This document shows, piece by piece, positions 1 through 45,314 of a stretch of DNA of 45,853 nt. The DNA comes from Polyrhizophydium stewartii (lineage: Eukaryota; Chytridiomycota; Chytridiomycetes; Rhizophydiales). The notes below the pieces were generated by a model. That model was not told the DNA's origin. It saw nothing but the letters and a program-made list of their open reading frames with translations, and ran no database searches. The position numbers and the translations under genes are program-made. The DNA lies in contig JADGIZ010000020.1 in NCBI GenBank assembly GCA_027604665.1, positions 1-45,853 on the forward strand, in the 5' to 3' direction. Within the stretch, counting starts at the first letter, position 1. Each line of letters starts with the position of its first letter.

Positions 1-70
1 GCCCCCCTTAGGGGGGCCCCCCCGGATCCTTCAGATCCGGGCCTCAGAAGAGCTTCTGAGGCGACGTCGC
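1..70. repeat. GC-rich hairpin string, copy 1 of the 1/29446 pair
   Basis: Four palindromic modules are joined end to end. The first is GCCCCCC-TTA-GGGGGGC (1-17). After four C comes CCGGATCCTTCAGATCCGG (22-40; 7-bp stem, 5-base loop). Then a 22-nt hairpin runs from GCCTCAGAAG to CTTCTGAGGC with AG between (41-62), and it overlaps the perfect palindrome GCGACGTCGC (61-70). The same order of modules occurs at 29446-29513, where the second hairpin is the exact reverse complement. The window begins inside or at the edge of the block. No coding role is visible. Confidence 0.9.
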
Positions 71-1385
71 TAGCGATCTATATTAATCTTAATTTCATGA
101 TCTCATTTCAGTCATTTCAAACTATTTTAGTTTTCATTCCTTACATTTATCTGCATGTTTTATATTGATTTCATTTAAATATATTAATCGGCGGGGTCTT
201 AATTGAGGTTTAATCGATTTCTGTTTAGTTTTACCTAATGGATACCCTCACAGATTACTTTATTGGATACTAATTGAGCCTTCATGATTAATAGTCCACT
301 AAGTTCTACTAATTTAATACTAAACAGTAGAGTAACTAATCTAAACTATCTGAGCTAAAGTTTCTATATTTATTGTGGCCCTAAATTGCATACATCTAAT
401 ATAATATACCATATAGTATTTCTTTAGATATGTCCTAATATAATTGTAAGATTAGTATTGTATCCGTATTAGTCTTTCTTAGGTAACTAAACGTCCATAA
501 TTGATTGCTATACCGGCATTGAAATTAGACTAATTGCCATAATGTTAACAATTAATGCTTAGTATCAATAAACTACAATTGGAACATATTTATTATTTAC
601 CAAAGATCATTAGATTCAATCAATAGAAGCGTTAACATCAAATAATCGAAGCTTCGCTTCTCTGAATGGTCCAATTAGATTAGGTAATATATCGAAATCT
701 TACACTGATTTTTTAAATAGGATTCAATAAAATGGATTACCGATCATGATAATATAAAAGGTCATACGTATAATCTATAATAGAAGAATATGACGCCTCC
801 CCTATCAGATTTTTAGTGACAGTTTCTGTATTACTTTTTTTGACAAATTTGGCTTCTACGATCTGACGATTAGGTTTATTGCTTGAATGGTAATGGCATT
901 CACTATTTTATTTTCGAGATGATTTTTACCTGATTCATTACGACTTACCAGGATTATTTAATCGAACCAGAGGTTCGACCATTATAAAAACTTCTACTCG
1001 CCTTGTGATAAAATGTAGTTGATTGATGTTATCGTATATTACGTGAGTCGCTAAAGTCATTGAAACTGCTGCTTAACATTTATTTGAGCTATTACCAGAA
1101 TATTCAAATCTTTATATATATTCATGTCTCTTTAATCGTGGTTATATTTAATATCTCCCAGGTGTAAGCACAAACGAGAAAGAAGAAATAGGACAATCAA
1201 TTATCCATAAGCGCACCTGAGATTTGTATCTCAATTAGAAACCCTTAATTGTAAATAACACATCTATCTTTTCATAAAGGGTTTAAGATTTTCCAGATGG
1301 GTCCGTATTAGGGTGACTATCAAGAATGTGAAAACGTATTCGATTCAGGCAATCTTCGATTGCTTTTATTTACTTCAGTTCTGAT
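71..1385. other. AT-rich spacer, no gene seen
   Basis: All frames are broken by frequent stops. I see only small hairpins, for example a GGTTCGACC-like inverted repeat near 963-980 (TCGAACCAGAGGTTCGA). No tRNA, rRNA or promoter could be recognised. Confidence 0.7.
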
Positions 1386-3299: not shown

Positions 3300-3761
3300 T
3301 TAAAATAACTTCGAATCTTTGATTAGCATCTTTAGAATTATCTAGGTGACGCGGATCGCTTTTTAGTGTAAATGAATATTAACTTAGCATGCGTGATAAG
3401 TTCCAATGGAGCTGAAACTCGGTCAACTTATTTATTATAACTAACTATTCTTAATTCCCTTGTTCTGATAGGTATTATCGCTTATAAAAGAAGTCACTCG
3501 TTTCTTATCGAATCCTTGATTCGAGTAATAGGTTTTAATATCGATCCTCTGGATCGACCTCTTTTTTATCAGTCCTATTATTCACTACTAGCAGAGGAAT
3601 TGGTATACTCAGCGGTCTCAAAACCGTTATATGCAGGTTCGAGTCATTAAGAGTAAAACATATTCCTGATTCGGTTAGCAACGAAGTTGCTGAGTCTCCT
3701 GAGTCAACCCAAATTGGAATTAGATCTCATCGCTAGCGACTAGGCCGAGTTATGATTAATT
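3300..3761. repeat. 462-bp tandem duplication, unit 1
   Basis: This segment is followed directly by a second copy (3762-4223) that reads as identical at every base I compared. The junction has a 3-base overlap (TTA). The unit carries a tRNA-like sequence, the hairpin CGAATC-CTTG-ATTCG, a GATCCTCTGGATC palindrome and GCAACGAAGTTGC. The lack of divergence points to a recent duplication, active homogenisation or an assembly artefact. Confidence 0.95.
3585..3660 (+). pseudogene. tRNA-Trp-like remnant, copy 1
   Basis: The stretch has a D-arm-like GAGGAATTGGTATACTC (GAG pairs with CTC around an AATTGG loop). An anticodon-like hairpin CGGT-CTCAAA-ACCG follows, then GGTTCGAGTC, which matches the T-loop consensus. 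A tRNA-Trp would show CTCCAAA in the anticodon loop, so the six-base loop looks like loss of one C from CCA. The T stem barely pairs and no complementary acceptor arms were found. I read it as a decayed or partial tRNA. It could also be a chance or snRNA-like resemblance. Confidence 0.35.
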
Positions 3762-4223
3762 TTAAAATAACTTCGAATCTTTGATTAGCATCTTTAGAAT
3801 TATCTAGGTGACGCGGATCGCTTTTTAGTGTAAATGAATATTAACTTAGCATGCGTGATAAGTTCCAATGGAGCTGAAACTCGGTCAACTTATTTATTAT
3901 AACTAACTATTCTTAATTCCCTTGTTCTGATAGGTATTATCGCTTATAAAAGAAGTCACTCGTTTCTTATCGAATCCTTGATTCGAGTAATAGGTTTTAA
4001 TATCGATCCTCTGGATCGACCTCTTTTTTATCAGTCCTATTATTCACTACTAGCAGAGGAATTGGTATACTCAGCGGTCTCAAAACCGTTATATGCAGGT
4101 TCGAGTCATTAAGAGTAAAACATATTCCTGATTCGGTTAGCAACGAAGTTGCTGAGTCTCCTGAGTCAACCCAAATTGGAATTAGATCTCATCGCTAGCG
4201 ACTAGGCCGAGTTATGATTAATT
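3762..4223. repeat. 462-bp tandem duplication, unit 2
   Basis: This is the second copy of 3300-3761. After it the sequence leaves the repeat with GTTATTTGAGCGGC and enters a GC-rich hairpin block. Confidence 0.95.
4047..4122 (+). pseudogene. tRNA-Trp-like remnant, copy 2
   Basis: It is identical to 3585-3660, including the six-base anticodon loop and the weak T stem, because it lies inside the duplicated unit. Confidence 0.35.
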
Positions 4224-5637: not shown

Positions 5638-7675
5638 TAGCTGGAGTCATGTTTAGCGTGATTCATTGATTATTGTAATTCTACTAGTCTTTGATCATCG
5701 ACTTTGTCGATGGATCCCATGTGATGAGATCGTAATTACGATCTTAAGGTTTAGCCACACCAAAGGTGTGGCAAGCTTAGTATAATCCAGAGGTAATTGA
5801 GTTTAGTCCATTGAGTCTATGGAACTTCTCATTATAATCTTGTGGAATTAACTTTATCAAGTTGAGAGCGAACGGTTCTTTACCTGGGAAAGTTATCAGG
5901 TTATCTTAGAAATCTTGATTAGGCTTAGTTCTGTCTAATTAATTTTCCCATCAGCGAAGCTGATGCCCTCAAAGGCTCCGAAATTGGCTATCAATGGATC
6001 TCAATGATCCTCTTTGGCTTAGTTGTGGTCCATCCTTTGGATTATATTTTATTCTCTATTTACACTCTTTTGAATTAACCATTACCCTAAGGGTGATTCT
6101 GAGTGAAATCTTTAGAACTTGGAGATCTTCTTTGGATAATAACAAAATCCATAAGTAATCGAAAAGTAGCTATTTCATCATTCTCTTTAAGTTCCAACAT
6201 ATTGTCTTAAGCTCTATCACACCAAAGGTGTTTCTTAATTATAAAACCAACAGTTGTCTTTTGATACATGGACTAACTGATAAAACTTAGATCGGATCAT
6301 AATATAAGATACTGCATCATCCAAAGGATGACGCATTCACCATCAAAGTTGAGATCATCTTCGATGATGTTGAGTTTGTAGAAAAATTCATGGTCAAACG
6401 AGACACCGTGGGCAAAGGGTAAGAACCTAAATTAACTAATGTACTTTACCTAGCGAACTCTCAATTAGACAGAATATTTATGAGAATTCCATTATTGTAG
6501 AAGTAGCGATCATAAATTGACCCTTAAGGAATGGATTTGCCGCAATAGCGGGACAACCAGATGTTAGAGGATTTATTTTGAAAGTCAAAGAATTTGACCT
6601 GCCAGACTCAATGAATTATTGGATAATTGCTTTGGGTCAAGGAAGGGACTTTTACTCTTTTGTGTTTAAGTTCTTTAGTCTAGAGGGTTTCAATAGTGGC
6701 ACGTGCTATGGCACGTGCTAAATGTTAATCACGCTTTGGGTTAAAGTGGTGAGCCTGTAGGGTTGGTGTCCCAATTGTAATTTCTTCCTTTTCTATGCAC
6801 TTGGCCGCTAGTCAGAGTAACGATCAGATAGACTCTTCCTTGGGATCAACGGAGTTGATCTAGAGAGACAAAATATCTGTATTTCAGAAAATGCTTTGCA
6901 AACCATAGGTCTTTGACCTGATGAAATAGAGTTCGTCATCACTTTGTGAGGATTTTCCAGCTTACCTCTATAACGGATTAAGGCATGACTTTATCCCAGA
7001 GGATCTGTTTCAGACTAGACAATCTAAGATTGGCTTTTAAATGATGGCTCATACCAATCGTTTAAACTAAGTCTAACATGAACTCCGTTCATGGAAGATT
7101 CTTGACTGGTCCATCGCAAAGCGATGGTAAACCTTCGGTTGATCACTCTTTTGGTATAAATAGATAAAAACAGCCATTCTCTCCATGGCAAAGTAAGATA
7201 GGTACACAATTGCCAATTCTATCCTTGATCTTAGCATAATTTCATAGTGTTTTAGAGTTGAACGATGACCAAAGGTCATCTTTACCGGTGGTTAATCCTT
7301 TACTTTATCTTCATCGGCAACCATTAGACAAAGTTAATCAAGACTACTTATAAGCCACACAAGTGGCTGCATTATTTAAGTGATGTCGTCAATGTGATCA
7401 TCTACGATGATCATACTTAAACCAATCATAAAGGATTCCTGAATAGTAGAACTACTTTGATCCATAGGATCCAATGACGTATCGTTGATTCTACTCCCTT
7501 GGAATTTTTAGTTGCAATAACCACTAAGAGCGATTCCTTCGTAGAGAATGGGCAAACCTCACTTACCAAAACCCATGAAGTTTTCATGGATCGTGTATTT
7601 CAAAGCAATCCACCCGATCAGAATCGACTCTGGATCATTACCATGAAACTCATTGCGGTAGCTAAATTTTCTTGC

Positions 7676-7717
7676 AACTCGGCCGAAGGGCGAGTTCCCG
7701 CATCCGCGGCAACTCTA
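7676..7717 (+). repeat. Hairpin plus CCCGCATCCGC tail, copy 1
   Basis: A hairpin AACTCG-GCCGAAGGG-CGAGTT (7676-7696) is followed by the tail CCCGCATCCGCG and then GCAACTCTA. The AACTC of the tail repeats the left arm, so the middle GAGTT could pair with either side. The same layout with AACCC/GGGTT/AACCC is at 45525-45566. The tail alone, joined to another hairpin, is at 20163-20203. Confidence 0.75.
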
Positions 7718-8310
7718 TGAACAAATCGTTAACCCAATTTGAGATTGCTCTTCGATTGTTCTAGTGGCAAAGAATAGTTTCCACCTATTCTTTGGCTTAT
7801 CCGTTTAGTGAGTTAAGAAATCTTGTCTGTATTCTAATATTCTCCTTTATCTAGCCTCATTGACTCGATTGGTATCTGCTTTACTTTGACTCATGTTGTT
7901 AAGAATAAAATTGAGGATCTATTTAGTCCACCTTCGTGGCTTGGCATCAGTATTTGTAAACTCTTTATGCTACCTTTCTAAGCTAACTCATATTAGTCCA
8001 CTGATGTACACGTCCAAAGTTAAGCCATTCCCTATTAATTCTCTACATTAGCGTTTTAGTATTTCCCTTTATTAGCTGTATGTATAACTCAATAGTGAGC
8101 CGGAATCTTTAGATCTTCCCTAAGTCTCGGTTTAGCATTTTGACCTGTTTGAGCCTTAACTCTTGCATTACCCTTAGTTGCCTATGAGTTTGGTCTTACC
8201 GAATTAAAAATGTTTAGGGATCTCCTTTACTACTTGAAACCCTTTCATTTTTCAAGCAAGGGATACTCCTATGGGTTCTCCTGATGGATCATCCAATTTC
8301 AGGTCTTTAG

Positions 8311-11450: not shown

Positions 11451-11722
11451 CTGAGCCGCGACGTCGCCTCATAAGCTCTTCTGAGGCCCGGTGCTTGAAG
11501 CACCGGCGGCCCCCCCATCTTCGATGGGGGGCCGGTCGCGGACGCTAGTAGGAGCCTTTACAAGGCTCCGTGACGGGCCCCCTGTAGGGGCCCCCCGCCC
11601 CTCAAGGGGGCGGGCCGGAGCGACCGGAGCCTTGTAAAGGCTCCTACGTCGCACCTACGAGGCCTTGGCCTCGGGACCCCTTAAGGGTCCATCAGGAGGC
11701 TAGTCACGACCGCTCCGCTGCG
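11451..11722. repeat. Large hairpin-string block, copy 1 (with extra hairpin)
   Basis: Modules in order: CTGAGCCGCGACGTCGCC, a GCCTCA-type hairpin, GGTGCTTGAAGCACC (11490-11504), a CCCCCCAT-CTTCG-ATGGGGGG hairpin, then GCGGA. The 27 bases at 11543-11569 containing GGAGCCTTTACAAGGCTCC follow. Next come GTGACGGGCCCCC-TGTA-GGGGCCCC, CCGCCCCTCAAGGGGGCGGG, GGAGCCTTGTAAAGGCTCC (11626-11644), GAGGCCTTGGCCTC, CCCCTTAAGGG and a GACCGCTCCGCTGCG end. It matches 25833-26078 almost throughout except for the 27-base extra hairpin and a short difference before the end. Confidence 0.92.
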
Positions 11723-16321: not shown

Positions 16322-16359
16322 TGTGGAGGAGCGATCAGAGATCGCCCATCCACCTCGAA
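16322..16359 (+). repeat. GTGGAGG...CCTCGA element
   Basis: The left end TGTGGAGG and right end CCACCTCGAA surround an inner hairpin GCGATC-AGA-GATCGC. The termini match those of 24611, 29722 and 36215. Confidence 0.75.
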
Positions 16360-16586: not shown

Positions 16587-16628
16587 AATTCGGGTAAACG
16601 AATAGGCAATCTAAGATTGCTCATTCTA
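16587..16628 (+). repeat. Hairpin-exchange site, copy with GCAATC stem
   Basis: AATTCGGGTAAACGAATAG is followed by GCAATCTAAGATTGC (16606-16620) and TCATTCTA. At 33160-33201 the same flanks hold CCGCTCTTTGAGCGG. Both inserts are 15 nt with 6-bp stems but share no stem sequence. Confidence 0.9.
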
Positions 16629-18038
16629 AATAATCATAATGAAAGAGGTAAGACTTAGATTGATTATAAACTATTTTTATCACTCTCGATCTATGATCGA
16701 CTAAACTTGAATTGATGATGAATAAGGGTTTAGATAACCACCAAAAGTACGAGTCGCTCTGATTATTGTTGATTAAAAGATACGTTGGAACTTTTGCGCA
16801 CCTGTGAGTGCCCCACGTTTCCTTTTTGAGACTCCGCAGCGTTATTTTAGTTCTATTTGGAGGACCTCCGGTCCGCATATTATTCTTGTGGTCTAACTCA
16901 CTCCTTATACAAACCCCCTTAAGCGGCGGAGCGATCTCATCGGGGGTACCTTCTACGGCTATTCACACTTAAAGGTGAAATGACCTCTTATATTTATCTA
17001 AATCTTGATTAATTTAGTTTATGAAAGCTATCGCTATATTCATTAAAAGCCGGGTATAAAGTAATAGTTGGTCCCGCCCAAAGGTCGTGGTCGCTCCCCG
17101 GAACCTCGAAGCCAACGGTTGCACACTCAAAAAGGGTATCTAATTTTAAGCTCCAGAGAAGCGGGAGGTGAACGATAAGTAACATATTTTAAAGTAAGCT
17201 TGCAGTCAAACTTATTAGGTAAGCCTTTTTATATGAATTACTGAGCCGCTCAGATCTAACTCATCTAGATGAGTGAAGGGAAGAGACAAGTTCAGTATAT
17301 AATCAGCTATGTATATAAACCACCTAGGTGGTTGGCTATCTATTAGAAGATGTTGAAGTTGGAGCAAACTAAGAAGTCAGACCCAATATATAAACTATCT
17401 TCACCCCGATGTCTAAAGAAATGGGTTCAATTCTCATTGGGTCAATAAGGGCCTCGTATTATAAATTAGAAATGAAGCCCCCTTGAGGGGAGTTCCTCTA
17501 GAACCGGGTGGTTCCGAGATTAGACATAAGTCAGTAATAGTTCTAGAGGTTGGTCTAAAGCAGAAATTCTCTCATGACTGTAAAACAAAGAGATAGCGGA
17601 TGAATCCGAAGGGTGATGACACTTTATGCCCCACCAAATAATTAGAGGTCCGTGTTCGAATACTACGTTAATCAATTCAACTGTTGAATATCAGTGTAAA
17701 ATATTCAAATTTGGTTTTTAATGAAGAGTCTACCCGAGACTAAATCGGTACAATGGTTGAAATGGATATGTTATTGAAGTAATGAGACTAAGGTGGATTA
17801 CGGATCTAAATTGAAGTGGACATTGCCCCCTATGTGGAGTGTAAGAATGGAATGACCACCTGAGTCTCTAGTTCCTGCCTTACACCCACTGGGGGTTTTT
17901 CTCTTTTGGAATAGCAACGCACCCCTAGAAATTGAGGTGGAATCGAATCTCTGATTCGACTCCACGACCATCTAACCTAAATCGCGAAGCCGCTTAAGGG
18001 GTCCATCCGCGACAAATCCCCCCGCGCGGCGCCGCAAC

Positions 18039-18890: not shown

Positions 18891-19063
18891 TGGGCCCCCC
18901 GCCCCTCTAGGGGGCGGGCCGGAGCGACCGGAGCCTTGTAAAGGCTCCTACGTCGCACCTACGGTGCTTAAGCACCGGACCCCTTAAGGGTCCATCAGGA
19001 GGCGACGTCACGGCCGTGACCGGGGCGCCTGAGGCGCCCCTACGTCACGACCGCTCCGCTGCG
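18891..19063. repeat. Large hairpin-string block, copy 2 (substituted hairpins)
   Basis: It starts at the GGGCCCCCCGCCCC module shared with 11580 and 25940, with loop TCTA instead of TCAA. It has GGAGCCTTGTAAAGGCTCC (18930-18948). After CACCTAC it carries GGTGCTTAAGCACC (18963-18976) where the other two blocks carry GAGGCCTTGGCCTC. It then continues identically (ACCCCTTAAGGGTCCATCAG). Before the common GACCGCTCCGCTGCG end it has an extra module containing GGGGCGCCTGAGGCGCCCC. Confidence 0.9.
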
Positions 19064-19833: not shown

Positions 19834-20162
19834 TTTAGAAATTAAGGGAAATCGTAGATTGTCGATTCATGAACGGTCCCCGGCTCTTCGAGCCCGGTCG
19901 CGGCGTTGCCTCATAAGAGCTTCTGAGGCGACGTTGCGTCCACCTCCACGACAAGATAATAACCAAATGATTGACCGATTGATAGTTGATCGATCTACAA
20001 TCGATGAAATGACATTCTTAAGATCCTGAATAGGGCCGCACCCCTAATATACTAATCAGAAGCTAGCGTTCAAGGTAAGGCCTCTAGAGTGCCATTTTTT
20101 AATAAAAGGTTTTGATGACTTTGCTTCTCTTGATATCTATACTGTATTACCCCATTACACCT

Positions 20163-22543: not shown

Positions 22544-23037
22544 AGCGGATACGCGGTTGGTGAAAAGACATTATCCAGAATATTAATCGCCAATTCGCCT
22601 CGTCTTCAAGTTGGTTTGCTATAGATTAACTTGTCATTAAGTTGTAGCGTAATTAGGTTACGATCTAGTCGAATGGTTTTGGTACTTATTTATCAACTTC
22701 CCCTTTATATTCACAATATTTTCTGCAAATCGGCCCGGAGGGGCGATTAGCGCGACGACGTCGCGCCAATCTATACTAAATTAGCTGGTTAATTCAGTTT
22801 ACCAATCCTCAATACCTTAAAGCTTAAATAGGTGCTACTGATTAATTTATTATTTTCTTGAATGCTAATGGGTTTAATTCCTATCTGCCCTATTTACTCA
22901 GATGTCGAAGATGGGATCATTGAATCTTGATCACCTTTCTCAGTTGGGCGCGGGTTAGATTTCCTCCTTTTATTATTCCTATTACACTGTACATCAGCAT
23001 GTTTGGCATTCTACTAGCAAATCCTGGTAATCTCAAT
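22544..23037. repeat. 494-bp near-tandem duplication, copy 1
   Basis: It starts AGCGGATACGCGG and ends GGTAATCTCAAT. It is identical by eye to 23081-23574, with 43 unrelated bases between the copies. It contains a CGGCCCGGAGGGGCGAT element at 22727. Confidence 0.93.
22727..22772 (+). repeat. CGGCCCGGAGGGGCGAT element, GACGACGTC variant
   Basis: The centre is GCGCGAC-GAC-GTCGCGC, against GCGCGAC-TA-GTCGCGC at 5374 and 4435. The stem is the same and the loop is altered. Confidence 0.85.
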
Positions 23038-23080: not shown

Positions 23081-23574
23081 AGCGGATACGCGGTTGGTGA
23101 AAAGACATTATCCAGAATATTAATCGCCAATTCGCCTCGTCTTCAAGTTGGTTTGCTATAGATTAACTTGTCATTAAGTTGTAGCGTAATTAGGTTACGA
23201 TCTAGTCGAATGGTTTTGGTACTTATTTATCAACTTCCCCTTTATATTCACAATATTTTCTGCAAATCGGCCCGGAGGGGCGATTAGCGCGACGACGTCG
23301 CGCCAATCTATACTAAATTAGCTGGTTAATTCAGTTTACCAATCCTCAATACCTTAAAGCTTAAATAGGTGCTACTGATTAATTTATTATTTTCTTGAAT
23401 GCTAATGGGTTTAATTCCTATCTGCCCTATTTACTCAGATGTCGAAGATGGGATCATTGAATCTTGATCACCTTTCTCAGTTGGGCGCGGGTTAGATTTC
23501 CTCCTTTTATTATTCCTATTACACTGTACATCAGCATGTTTGGCATTCTACTAGCAAATCCTGGTAATCTCAAT
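23081..23574. repeat. 494-bp near-tandem duplication, copy 2
   Basis: This is the second copy of 22544-23037. It includes a second CGGCCCGGAGGGGCGAT element (23264-23309). Confidence 0.93.
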
Positions 23575-25832: not shown

Positions 25833-26078
25833 CTGAGCCGCGACGTCGCCTCAGAAGCTCTTCTGAGGCCCGGTGCTTGAAGCACCGGCGGCCCCCCCAT
25901 CTTCGATGGGGGGCCGGTCGCGGAGTGACGGGCCCCCTGTAGGGGCCCCCCGCCCCTCAAGGGGGCGGGCCGGAGCGACCGGAGCCTTGTAAAGGCTCCT
26001 ACGTCGCACCTACGAGGCCTTGGCCTCGGGACCCCTTAAGGGTCCATCAGGAGGCGACGTCACGACCGCTCCGCTGCG
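25833..26078. repeat. Large hairpin-string block, copy 3 (without extra hairpin)
   Basis: It matches 11451-11722 module by module. At 25920-25929 it reads GCGGAGTGAC continuously where copy 1 has the 27-base hairpin insert. It ends GGAGGCGACGTCACGACCGC, against GGCTAGTCACGACCGC in copy 1. Confidence 0.92.
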
Positions 26079-29398: not shown

Positions 29399-29513
29399 CT
29401 GCGCGGAGCTCGCGCTAGCGACCGCAGCGGAGCGGAGTGGCGGGGGCCCCCCTTAGGGGGGCCCCCCCGGATCTGAAGGATCCGGGCCTCAGAAGAACTT
29501 ATGAGGCGACGCC
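29399..29513. repeat. GC-rich hairpin string, copy 2 of the 1/29446 pair
   Basis: GCTGCGCGGAGCTCGCGC and CCGCAGCGGAGCGG lead into GCCCCCC-TTA-GGGGGGC (29446-29462). Next come CCCC, then CCGGATCTGAAGGATCCGG (29467-29485), and a GCCTCAG hairpin with two changes (GAACTTATG). Compared with 1-70 only the CCGGATC hairpin is reversed, while its neighbours keep order and orientation. Confidence 0.92.
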
Positions 29514-33159: not shown

Positions 33160-33201
33160 AATTCGGGTAAACGAATAGCCGCTCTTTGAGCGGTCATTCT
33201 A
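33160..33201 (+). repeat. Hairpin-exchange site, copy with CCGCTC stem
   Basis: AATTCGGGTAAACGAATAG is followed by CCGCTCTTTGAGCGG (33179-33193) and TCATTCTA. It is the partner of 16587-16628. Confidence 0.9.
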
Positions 33202-44410: not shown

Positions 44411-44430
44411 CCGCGGCGGATGCCGCTCCG
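44411..44430 (-). repeat. TTGGAGCGACTCC-like element, GCGGC/GCCGC sub-type
   Basis: CCGCGGCGGATGCCGCTCCG. It is a diverged member with loop GGAT. Confidence 0.6.
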
Positions 44431-45314
44431 AGATTGCTCAAGATTATTTAGGTAGAGATATTGGATATATAAAATCCCAAGACACATTTTATTATGGTTC
44501 TGCTAAAAAGGTTATATAATACTTCGACAAATATCATTTACAGTCTAAAAAGCACATAGATTATTTTTAATGAAGAAGGGGGCATTCAGGGAATGCTCAA
44601 AGCAAGGATCATTTAACTGAAAAGGGACTAACTAAAATACAGGGAATAAAGTCCTTAATCAACCATACCGTAAATAAAACTACAATTTTAGATAGAGTCC
44701 TAATAAGAATATATGAAAGTTCTTGAGTATTAAGAAAAATAGACTATCAAACAATACAGCTAGATTTATTAATCAAAACATTTGTTATATTTTTATAATA
44801 CCTGGTTTTGGAATAATTAGTACAACTATTTACGCAAGTTCAAACAAAAGCGTATTTGGTTAAATGGTGTCAGTCAAGATGTAAGTCTGATTTCACTAGA
44901 AGCAGGGAGGATTCTTCAAAATGGCTTTTTCCTATTCTAAACAACAGCAACATCAGAAAGAGATAGCTTAAACGGCTGTTCTAAATAATTACCTAGAATG
45001 AACAATATACTTCAAAGTTGCTATTAGCGTAGTGGTAATTGAATCTGTAACAGATGTACTTGCATACTTTAAGGAGGCCTTAATGGTTTGGTACTTAATC
45101 GATTGTACTCGCAACATTGACGTAATGGCCCGCTCACGGGTGCTTTATATACTGAGTTTAAGCCGATGTCCTACTCACAAATTAACTATGAGGATATTTA
45201 TCGAATCTACGATTCGACTAATTATCACGATTATGCCATAGACTAGGGAATATTGGTTGGAGGAATACCAAAGCTGAACCAATTAGGGTACCATTCTTCT
45301 TAAGTATTTTAACA

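What the first reader, a model, noticed from the sequence alone, without database searches (positions are those of the whole stretch)
16606..16620. Same flanks, same length, different hairpin
At 16587-16628 and 33160-33201 identical flanks (19 bases left, 8 right) hold two 15-base hairpins, GCAATCTAAGATTGC and CCGCTCTTTGAGCGG. Nearly every stem base differs, yet both form 6-bp stems with 3-base loops. Point-by-point compensatory change would need six paired events while the flanks stayed fixed. Exchange of whole hairpins, or copying of a palindrome by template switching, explains it more simply.
Basis: partly seen in the sequence, partly recalled or inferred. Interest (0 to 1): 0.75.

Follow-up and report, generated by a model that had tools for sequence, protein, structure and literature searches.

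The report
Swapped hairpins inside mitochondrial repeat elements
In what looks like the repeat-filled mitochondrial DNA of a chytrid fungus, a short repeated element keeps its two ends while the small hairpin in its middle differs as a whole, as if hairpins were interchangeable parts.

Summary
Genome-wide the element is a constant 5' hairpin (ATTCGGRTAAACGAAT), a variable second hairpin and an ATTCT tail. In 28 intact copies the second hairpin has four kinds (7 GCAATC, 4 CCGCTC, 8 CCGC/CTA, 9 CCGCCTCC; lengths 15, 15, 11, 23), two of them also with inverted loops. A tail-anchored search that admits every intermediate on the direct path between the two stems found 10 + 4 exact sites and no intermediate. 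Both stems recur outside the frame. Of 56 shared-flank block replacements in 240 kb, 5 are hairpin for hairpin (0.03 expected): this one, three other stem swaps (one inside the window) and one change of a hairpin top. Whole-hairpin exchange is thus better supported than gradual compensation here. The slow route exists too: another family has half-changed intermediates, and stand-alone stems form one-pair series. Unit shuffling is known in yeast mitochondrial GC clusters, so this is a new variant, not a new kind.

The parts
16588..16603 (+). H1, constant 5' hairpin of copy A1 (stem ATTCG/CGAAT, loop GGTAAA)
16606..16620 (+). H2 of copy A1, GCAATC-TAA-GATTGC
16621..16628 (+). constant tail TCATTCTA; its ATTC is also complementary to GAAT of H1
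33161..33176 (+). H1 of copy A2
33179..33193 (+). H2 of copy A2, CCGCTC-TTT-GAGCGG
33194..33201 (+). constant tail TCATTCTA; in the predicted best fold its ATTC pairs with GAAT of H1 around H2
1349..1363 (+). stand-alone GCAATC hairpin with another loop (TTC), unrelated flanks
18962..18977 (+). second swap in the window: CGGTGC-TTAA-GCACCG between flanks shared with 11658 and 26013
11658..11673 (+). CGAGGC-CTTG-GCCTCG in that same frame
26013..26028 (+). CGAGGC-CTTG-GCCTCG in that same frame; 55 left and 36 right bases shared with 18962 around the changed block, outer stem bases included
18..41 (+). hairpin GGATC[CTTCA]GATCC, centre inverted at 29463-29486
29463..29486 (+). same hairpin with inverted centre, GGATC[TGAAG]GATCC
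11466..11487 (+). GCCTCATAAG..CTTCTGAGGC, one arm changed: intermediate of the slow paired route
19908..19929 (+). as 11466: one arm changed
29486..29507 (+). same family, the change on the other arm in window orientation

Best explanation
The two sites are copies of one dispersed, modular two-hairpin element in (most likely) chytrid mitochondrial DNA. H1 and the tail are the kept part; the second hairpin is an exchangeable unit that is replaced, or inverted, as a whole. Shown here: constant frame, four discrete second hairpins, inverted loops, no intermediates found in the frame, reuse of both stems outside it, and further hairpin-for-hairpin replacements in other frames. Inferred: that hairpins move as fold-back units during replication or repair, the 3' end leaving a stalled hairpin, copying another hairpin through a few matching bases at its foot (AG..TCA stands around the stand-alone A1-like hairpins at C4:38555 and C39:34932, which lie in one duplicated segment) and returning to the frame, or that they are joined by recombination; perfect palindromy then needs no paired mutations. 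Direction of change, donors, and whether it happens on DNA or RNA are not shown.
For: 28 frame copies genome-wide, H2 exact within each kind: 4 A1, 3 A1 loop-inverted, 4 A2, 8 B, 7 C, 2 C loop-inverted; the other 7 of 35 matches carry no such hairpin, control 5 + 3. Tail-anchored search over all arm combinations on the direct path: 14 exact sites = 10 GCAATC + 4 CCGCTC, 0 intermediates, 0 half-changed; 5 more at one mismatch, none a frame intermediate; control 0. Any 15-base insert between ACGAAT and TCATTCT: 11 exact, all A1, A1 inverted or A2. GCAATC..GATTGC within 2 mismatches: 67 sites per strand against 4 in the control; 39 perfect-stem sites in held sequence, 32 outside the frame, 28 of these in unrelated contexts (26 if duplicated segments count once). 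CCGCTC..GAGCGG: 15 sites, 4 in the frame, 9 in a different frame with other loops, 1 alone with A2's exact 15 bases (C17:23456), 1 in GC-rich surroundings. Tail copies with another 5' side (C1:71110, C412:5412, C432:6917, C3:58242), the last with a different 5' hairpin. Frame GACGTAG..CGGTC holds 12 + 1 + 1 + 1 copies of four hairpins. Of 56 distinct shared-flank block replacements 5 are hairpin for hairpin, 0.03 expected. On 12 aligned copies (6 distinct) 3 of 6 H2 pairs change on both sides, covariation score 0.273 against 0.129, 0 of 500 shuffles.
Against: A1 and A2 have equal length and share three of six stem pairs; chance allows that (about 0.17 by binomial arithmetic, no call), descent also explains it. 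Single-pair compensation is seen in this DNA (ATTTG/CAAAT forms of H1 at C4:5725 and C4:36499). In one search the number of pairs changed on both sides was reached by 55 of 500 shuffles. Of the five hairpin-for-hairpin cases one is the finding itself and one (L022 against the window's minus strand) changes only the top of the same stem; 41 of 56 block replacements involve no hairpin and 10 only one. Outside the frame and tail, held sequence has 4 sites (3 independent) with mismatched arm combinations, one of them CCGCTC opposite GATTGC (window 44423); about one is expected by chance (my arithmetic). In sequence not fetched for it, GCAATC stands in 3 contexts and CCGCTC in 1. No frame without a second hairpin was found, tested exactly and for the A-type tail only, so no removal-and-refill step is visible. 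The exact A2 hairpin also occurs once in GC-rich surroundings (C448), so a lone exact match may be chance. No related genome, reads or population data were available.
Confidence: 0.6

Rival explanations
1. Stepwise compensatory change: A1 and A2 descend from one element by three paired substitutions (each perhaps one event if one arm templates the other), under constraint on H1 and tail, and the intermediates are lost because only two source copies multiplied.
For: Only three of six pairs differ, same length and loop size. One-pair neighbours among stand-alone 7-bp stems are enriched, 39 against 12.5 (sd 3.6), 0 of 300 column shuffles. GCCTCA[G/T]AAG..CTT[C/A]TGAGGC: of 30 sites 24 G-C, 5 half-changed, 1 T-A. 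Stems one or two steps from GCAATC and CCGCTC exist elsewhere in held sequence: GCGATC 5, CCGATC 3, CCAATC 1, CCACTC 1 sites.
Against: No intermediate found in the frame or with the tail, genome-wide; B and C second hairpins have other lengths; the loop is inverted in 3 of 7 GCAATC and 2 of 9 CCGCCTCC copies; the same stems recur in unrelated contexts.
Confidence: 0.17
3. Assembly artefact: short-read joins across the identical flanks.
For: Palindromes are hard to assemble; two of the fetched stretches hold N (L022, L025), which may be gaps or withheld bases.
Against: 4 + 4 copies in eight different surroundings, 28 frame copies with only four kinds of hairpin; the 42-base element is shorter than ordinary reads.
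Confidence: 0.03

Closest known systems
GC clusters of Saccharomyces mitochondrial DNA (Wu and Hao 2015, PMC4478555; abstract, passages and section 18 read)
   Same: Short palindromic mobile units in mtDNA; merger and shuffling of units; there 403 sequences in 18 strains share the first 13 bases and fall into 76 types.
   Different: Here both ends are kept and the inner hairpin is replaced or inverted between them; units are not all GC-rich; different organism and sequences.
Double-hairpin elements of Allomyces mtDNA (Paquin et al. 2000; not read, known from recall and as cited in PMC2800124 and PMC7218506)
   Same: Two adjacent hairpins, dispersed in fungal mtDNA.
   Different: Sequences could not be compared; whether hairpins are exchanged there was not checked.
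Palindromic repeats of Volvox carteri organelle DNA (PMC2670323; passages read, abstract in part)
   Same: Bloated noncoding organelle DNA full of short palindromes, often inserted in one another.
   Different: There loops are mostly TAAA or TTTA and repeats share sequence; here unrelated stems sit in shared frames.
Repetitive hairpin-forming elements of sponge mtDNA (PMC2800124; abstract and sections 22, 23 read)
   Same: Hairpin units dispersed in mtDNA; tandem insertion makes double hairpins.
   Different: There stems are conserved and loops vary; here the stem itself differs within one frame.
Small inversions at plastid hairpins (search listing only; mechanism recalled)
   Same: Loop inverted between unchanged arms.
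   Different: There single plastid sites; here inverted copies of a dispersed repeat.

Membership tests
Mitochondrial double-hairpin elements (Allomyces type; features recalled) | two adjacent hairpins in one short element | tested here: met
   28 copies with H1 and a perfect second hairpin; the A1 copy is predicted to fold as two hairpins, the A2 copy with H2 nested on GAAT/ATTC
Mitochondrial double-hairpin elements (Allomyces type; features recalled) | dispersed in unrelated surroundings | tested here: met
   in held sequence, of 28 frame copies only the two in a 420-base tandem duplication on C61 share a flank; one other copy has a 15-base right-flank match elsewhere
Mitochondrial double-hairpin elements (Allomyces type; features recalled) | mobility shown by presence and absence at one site in relatives | not testable with these tools
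   no relative genome held; no empty site found in held sequence
Mitochondrial double-hairpin elements (Allomyces type; features recalled) | sequence relation to the described elements | not testable with these tools
   described sequences not at hand
Yeast mitochondrial GC clusters | same terminus joined to different downstream units | tested here: met
   H1 with four kinds of second hairpin
Yeast mitochondrial GC clusters | GC-rich palindrome | tested here: inconclusive
   CCGCTC, CCGC and CCGCCTCC stems are GC-rich, GCAATC and H1 are not
Yeast mitochondrial GC clusters | target-site duplication | tested here: inconclusive
   ATTC at both ends, with the same preceding base in B (G and G, 8 of 8) and C (A and A, 9 of 9) but not in A (A and C, 11 of 11); it may be part of the element
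Described structured RNA families (Rfam) | match to a covariance model | tested here: not met
   no match in the window at gathering score or at E 0.01
Chytrid-type mitochondrial DNA (setting) | mitochondrial genes with TAG read as leucine | tested here: inconclusive
   cox1 exons on C98, C29 and C4; C98 and C4 carry H1 copies; in-frame TAG at positions where the relatives shown have M or I; of the 120 listed of 1393 relatives of a C98 frame, the organism-named ones are two chytrids and one MAG labelled Cyanobacteriota; no gene found in the window itself

The most novel reading that the evidence does not exclude
In this mitochondrion hairpins behave as exchangeable cassettes: a structure-guided process (replicative template switching at hairpin feet, or a hairpin-specific recombinase) replaces and inverts whole palindromes between fixed flanks, so that palindromy is inherited as a unit and apparent compensatory change in such elements is often replacement.
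Probability: 0.33. Interest if true: 0.7.

Novelty: new variant of a known kind. Interest (0 to 1): 0.45.

Why it matters
Paired changes in a stem are usually read as proof of selection for structure. Here a frame of 27 unchanged bases holds stems that differ as a block, beside other hairpins in the same DNA that change pair by pair. If hairpins can be replaced whole, covariation in organelle repeats cannot be counted as independent compensations, and the bloating of such mitochondrial genomes has a modular engine that sister strains and cell-free polymerase assays could test directly.

Tried and rejected
Six paired events: rejected, three pairs differ. Bacterial or viral relatives: the H1 pattern in viral contigs gave 27 stretches, 40 following bases of each read by eye, none with a hairpin and ATTCT tail (L056 and L063, same sequence, have an unrelated hairpin downstream); the frame pattern in genome contigs gave 10, none with a second hairpin like those here, by eye. 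Rfam and tRNA: nothing in the window. Pfam on 10 of the 15 code-16 frames of 115 residues or more in the window: nothing. Photosynthetic reaction-centre family: no match, so plastid not supported. Empty sites: none found in held sequence. Frame without second hairpin: none, tested for the A-type tail only. A first, looser test of shared-flank pairs was swamped by chance pairs (1701 of 1764 without hairpins), and a first classification failed because shared flanks eat into stems; one search replaced it. In sequence not fetched for it, GCAATC is only the 28th commonest stem with a 3-base loop (3 contexts in 225,664 bases), so it is one of many stand-alone stems.

Full report
What is there. The window (G000:C20) holds two copies of a 42-base element, 16587-16628 and 33160-33201, identical in 19 left and 8 right bases. 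The hairpins differ at 8 of 15 positions: three of six stem pairs and two loop bases. The left flank is itself a hairpin (H1, ATTCG-GGTAAA-CGAAT), so the element is H1 + second hairpin (H2) + tail. On an alignment of 12 copies (6 distinct rows; 7 GCAATC, 4 CCGCTC, 1 decayed CCGCTC) three H2 pairs change on both sides, one departs only by an unpaired cell, and H1 has one one-sided change; the covariation score beats all 500 shuffles, the count of pairs changed on both sides is reached by 55 of 500.

Where it is. H1 with up to two mismatches occurs at 37 sites (control 0 forward and 2 reverse), and 37 were read. The frame TAAACRAAT-N(5-35)-ATTCT gives 35 matches, 28 with a perfect second hairpin: A1 GCAATC-TAA-GATTGC 4, the same with loop TTA 3, A2 CCGCTC-TTT-GAGCGG 4, B CCGC-CTA-GCGG 8, C CCGCCTCC-GTCGCTA-GGAGGCGG 7 and with inverted loop TAGCGAC 2; the other 7 do not carry such a hairpin, control 8. 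The 9 remaining H1 sites are: one decayed (C61:26487), two with a paired change in H1 (ATTTG..CAAAT, C4:5725 and C4:36499), four broken off in or beside H2 (C17:8787, C196:14167, C32:18342, C260:14667), two that look like chance (C302, C328). The H1 loop base G or A occurs both with the TTA form of A1 (2 G, 1 A) and with C (1 G, 8 A): all four combinations, which suggests recombination between H1 and H2 or a recurrent change.

Intermediates. Any 15-base insert between ACGAAT and TCATTCT: 11 exact sites, all A1, A1-inverted or A2; the six one-mismatch sites are no hairpins by eye; among the two-mismatch sites listed are two degenerate copies (C1:71103, C61:26463), the list is cut, and the totals (72 + 81 against 59 + 65 in the control) show that most are noise. 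A pattern that admits all eight paired stems on the direct path and their half-changed arms, followed by TCATTC, gives 14 exact sites: 10 GCAATC, 4 CCGCTC, nothing between, control 0. Five more have one mismatch: a stand-alone GCGATC hairpin (C3:24569), three GCGATC hairpins with TCATCC (C10 and twice C17; one read, C17:45712, in the GTGGA..TCCAC frame), and a CCGCTC copy with one stem mismatch whose 5' hairpin is a different one, GCGACT-GAT-AGTCGC (C3:58242). So H1, too, can be replaced. Outside frame and tail, held sequence has 4 sites (3 independent) with mismatched arm combinations, one CCGCTC opposite GATTGC at window 44423.

Stems outside the frame. GCAATC..GATTGC: 39 perfect-stem sites in held sequence, 7 in the frame, 3 with the tail but no proper H1 (C1:71110, C412:5412, C432:6917), 1 in GC-rich surroundings (C37), 28 elsewhere with loops GTA, ATA, GAA, TTA, AGA, GGA, AAT in one orientation or the other. 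Most of these loci were fetched because they held the stem, so this is no density; genome-wide the pattern gives 67 sites per strand within two mismatches against 4, and in 225,664 bases not fetched for it there are 3 contexts. CCGCTC..GAGCGG: 15 sites, 4 in the frame, 9 in another frame (GGAGG..CCGG), 1 alone, 1 in GC-rich surroundings.

How general. In 68 sequences (239,725 bases) the test for shared flanks around a replaced block found 56 distinct block pairs: in 5 both blocks are perfect hairpins, in 10 one, in 41 neither; random intervals predict 0.03 double-hairpin pairs. The five are the finding itself; CGGTGC-TTAA-GCACCG at window 18962 against CGAGGC-CTTG-GCCTCG at 26013 (also at 11658), two of six pairs, the loop and one adjoining base different, 55 left and 36 right bases shared around the block; CCCGCCCC.. 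against CCGGTGCT.. (L018, L022); CCCGGATCTC.. against CCCGGGACCCC.. (L023, window minus strand); and GCGCGACTAGTCGCGC against GCGCGACGTCGTCGCGC, which is a change of the hairpin top only. The frame GACGTAG..CGGTC holds four unrelated hairpins (12, 1, 1, 1), seven at 20 distinct sites if the flanks may vary (23 rows, three of them listed twice). Centres inverted in place occur also in GGATC[CTTCA/TGAAG]GATCC (window 18 and 29463). Perfect 6-bp stems with 3-base loops stand in 305 contexts against a mean of 95 in 20 sets of Markov sequences.

Results against. Slow paired change is at work too: GCCTCA[G/T]AAG..CTT[C/A]TGAGGC has 24 G-C, 5 half-changed (4 and 1, the same change seen from either strand) and 1 T-A among 30, and stand-alone 7-bp stems with 3-base loops have 39 one-pair neighbours against 12.5 (0 of 300 column shuffles; the shuffle does not keep relations between positions). 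Stems GCGATC 5, CCGATC 3, CCAATC 1 and CCACTC 1, which lie on the path between A1 and A2, exist outside the frame. Equal length and three shared pairs do not exclude descent. I put exchange in place at 0.6, independent joining to the same frame at 0.2, stepwise change at 0.17, artefact at 0.03.

Setting. cox1 exons lie on C98, C29 and C4, with a weak match on C61, and TAG inside several. C98, C4 and C61 carry H1 copies. TAG falls where the relatives shown have M or I. TAG as leucine is reported for chytrid mitochondria (PMC6131824, passages), and of the organism-named among 120 listed relatives of a C98 frame two are chytrids and one is a MAG labelled Cyanobacteriota. The window itself shows no gene, so its mitochondrial nature is inferred from shared repeats. 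A 10-kb piece of contig C5 is GC-rich with long frames, so the assembly is probably mixed.

Structure. ATTC, GAAT and ATTC follow one another in the frame; GAAT can pair with the first ATTC (H1) or with the tail around H2. The best predicted fold of the A2 copy is the latter, of the A1 copy the former. This may be why both ends are kept.

Known and new. Merger and shuffling of palindromic units is in print for yeast GC clusters (PMC4478555), nested palindromes for Volvox (PMC2670323). One narrow five-term search joining hairpins, template switching and compensation in mitochondrial genomes found no paper in this library. The replacement of an inner hairpin between two kept ends, with inverted forms, is what this case adds.

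Noticed in passing
17 contigs of G000 (C1, C3, C4, C17, C20, C32, C35, C39, C42, C61, C98, C140, C196, C260, C261, C432, C467): Contigs with at least one H1 copy at up to one mismatch add up to about 618 kb (lengths; sites); if all are one mitochondrial genome it is very large for a fungus (recalled).
   Followed up: partly
G000:C29:38597-38953 and C4:46134-46430: Two different cox1 N-terminal exons, suggesting a duplicated gene or two related mitochondrial genomes in the assembly.
   Followed up: no
window 22544-22843 and 23081-23380; 3300-3599 and 3762-4061: Two pairs of identical 300-base direct repeats at short distance.
   Followed up: no
window 16323-16353 and 17937-17965: Outer stem GTGGA..TCCAC holding different inner hairpins (GCGATC, TCGAATC) at 6 sites in held sequence; the GCGATC one also occurs inverted relative to its frame.
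   Followed up: partly
28 frame copies: The base before ATTC is the same at both ends in B (G, 8 of 8) and C (A, 9 of 9) but not in A (A and C, 11 of 11): a family-wise direct repeat.
   Followed up: partly
L017 (C98) 1441-2880: A 480-residue open frame whose translation holds a LAGLIDADG-like segment twice (motif recalled), upstream of cox1 exons.
   Followed up: no
L030 (C61) 7344-8190: 420-base tandem duplication whose copies include a B element.
   Followed up: no
window 44423-44437: CCGCTC-CGA-GATTGC followed by TCA: left arm of A2 opposite right arm of A1, outside the frame; may be chance.
   Followed up: no
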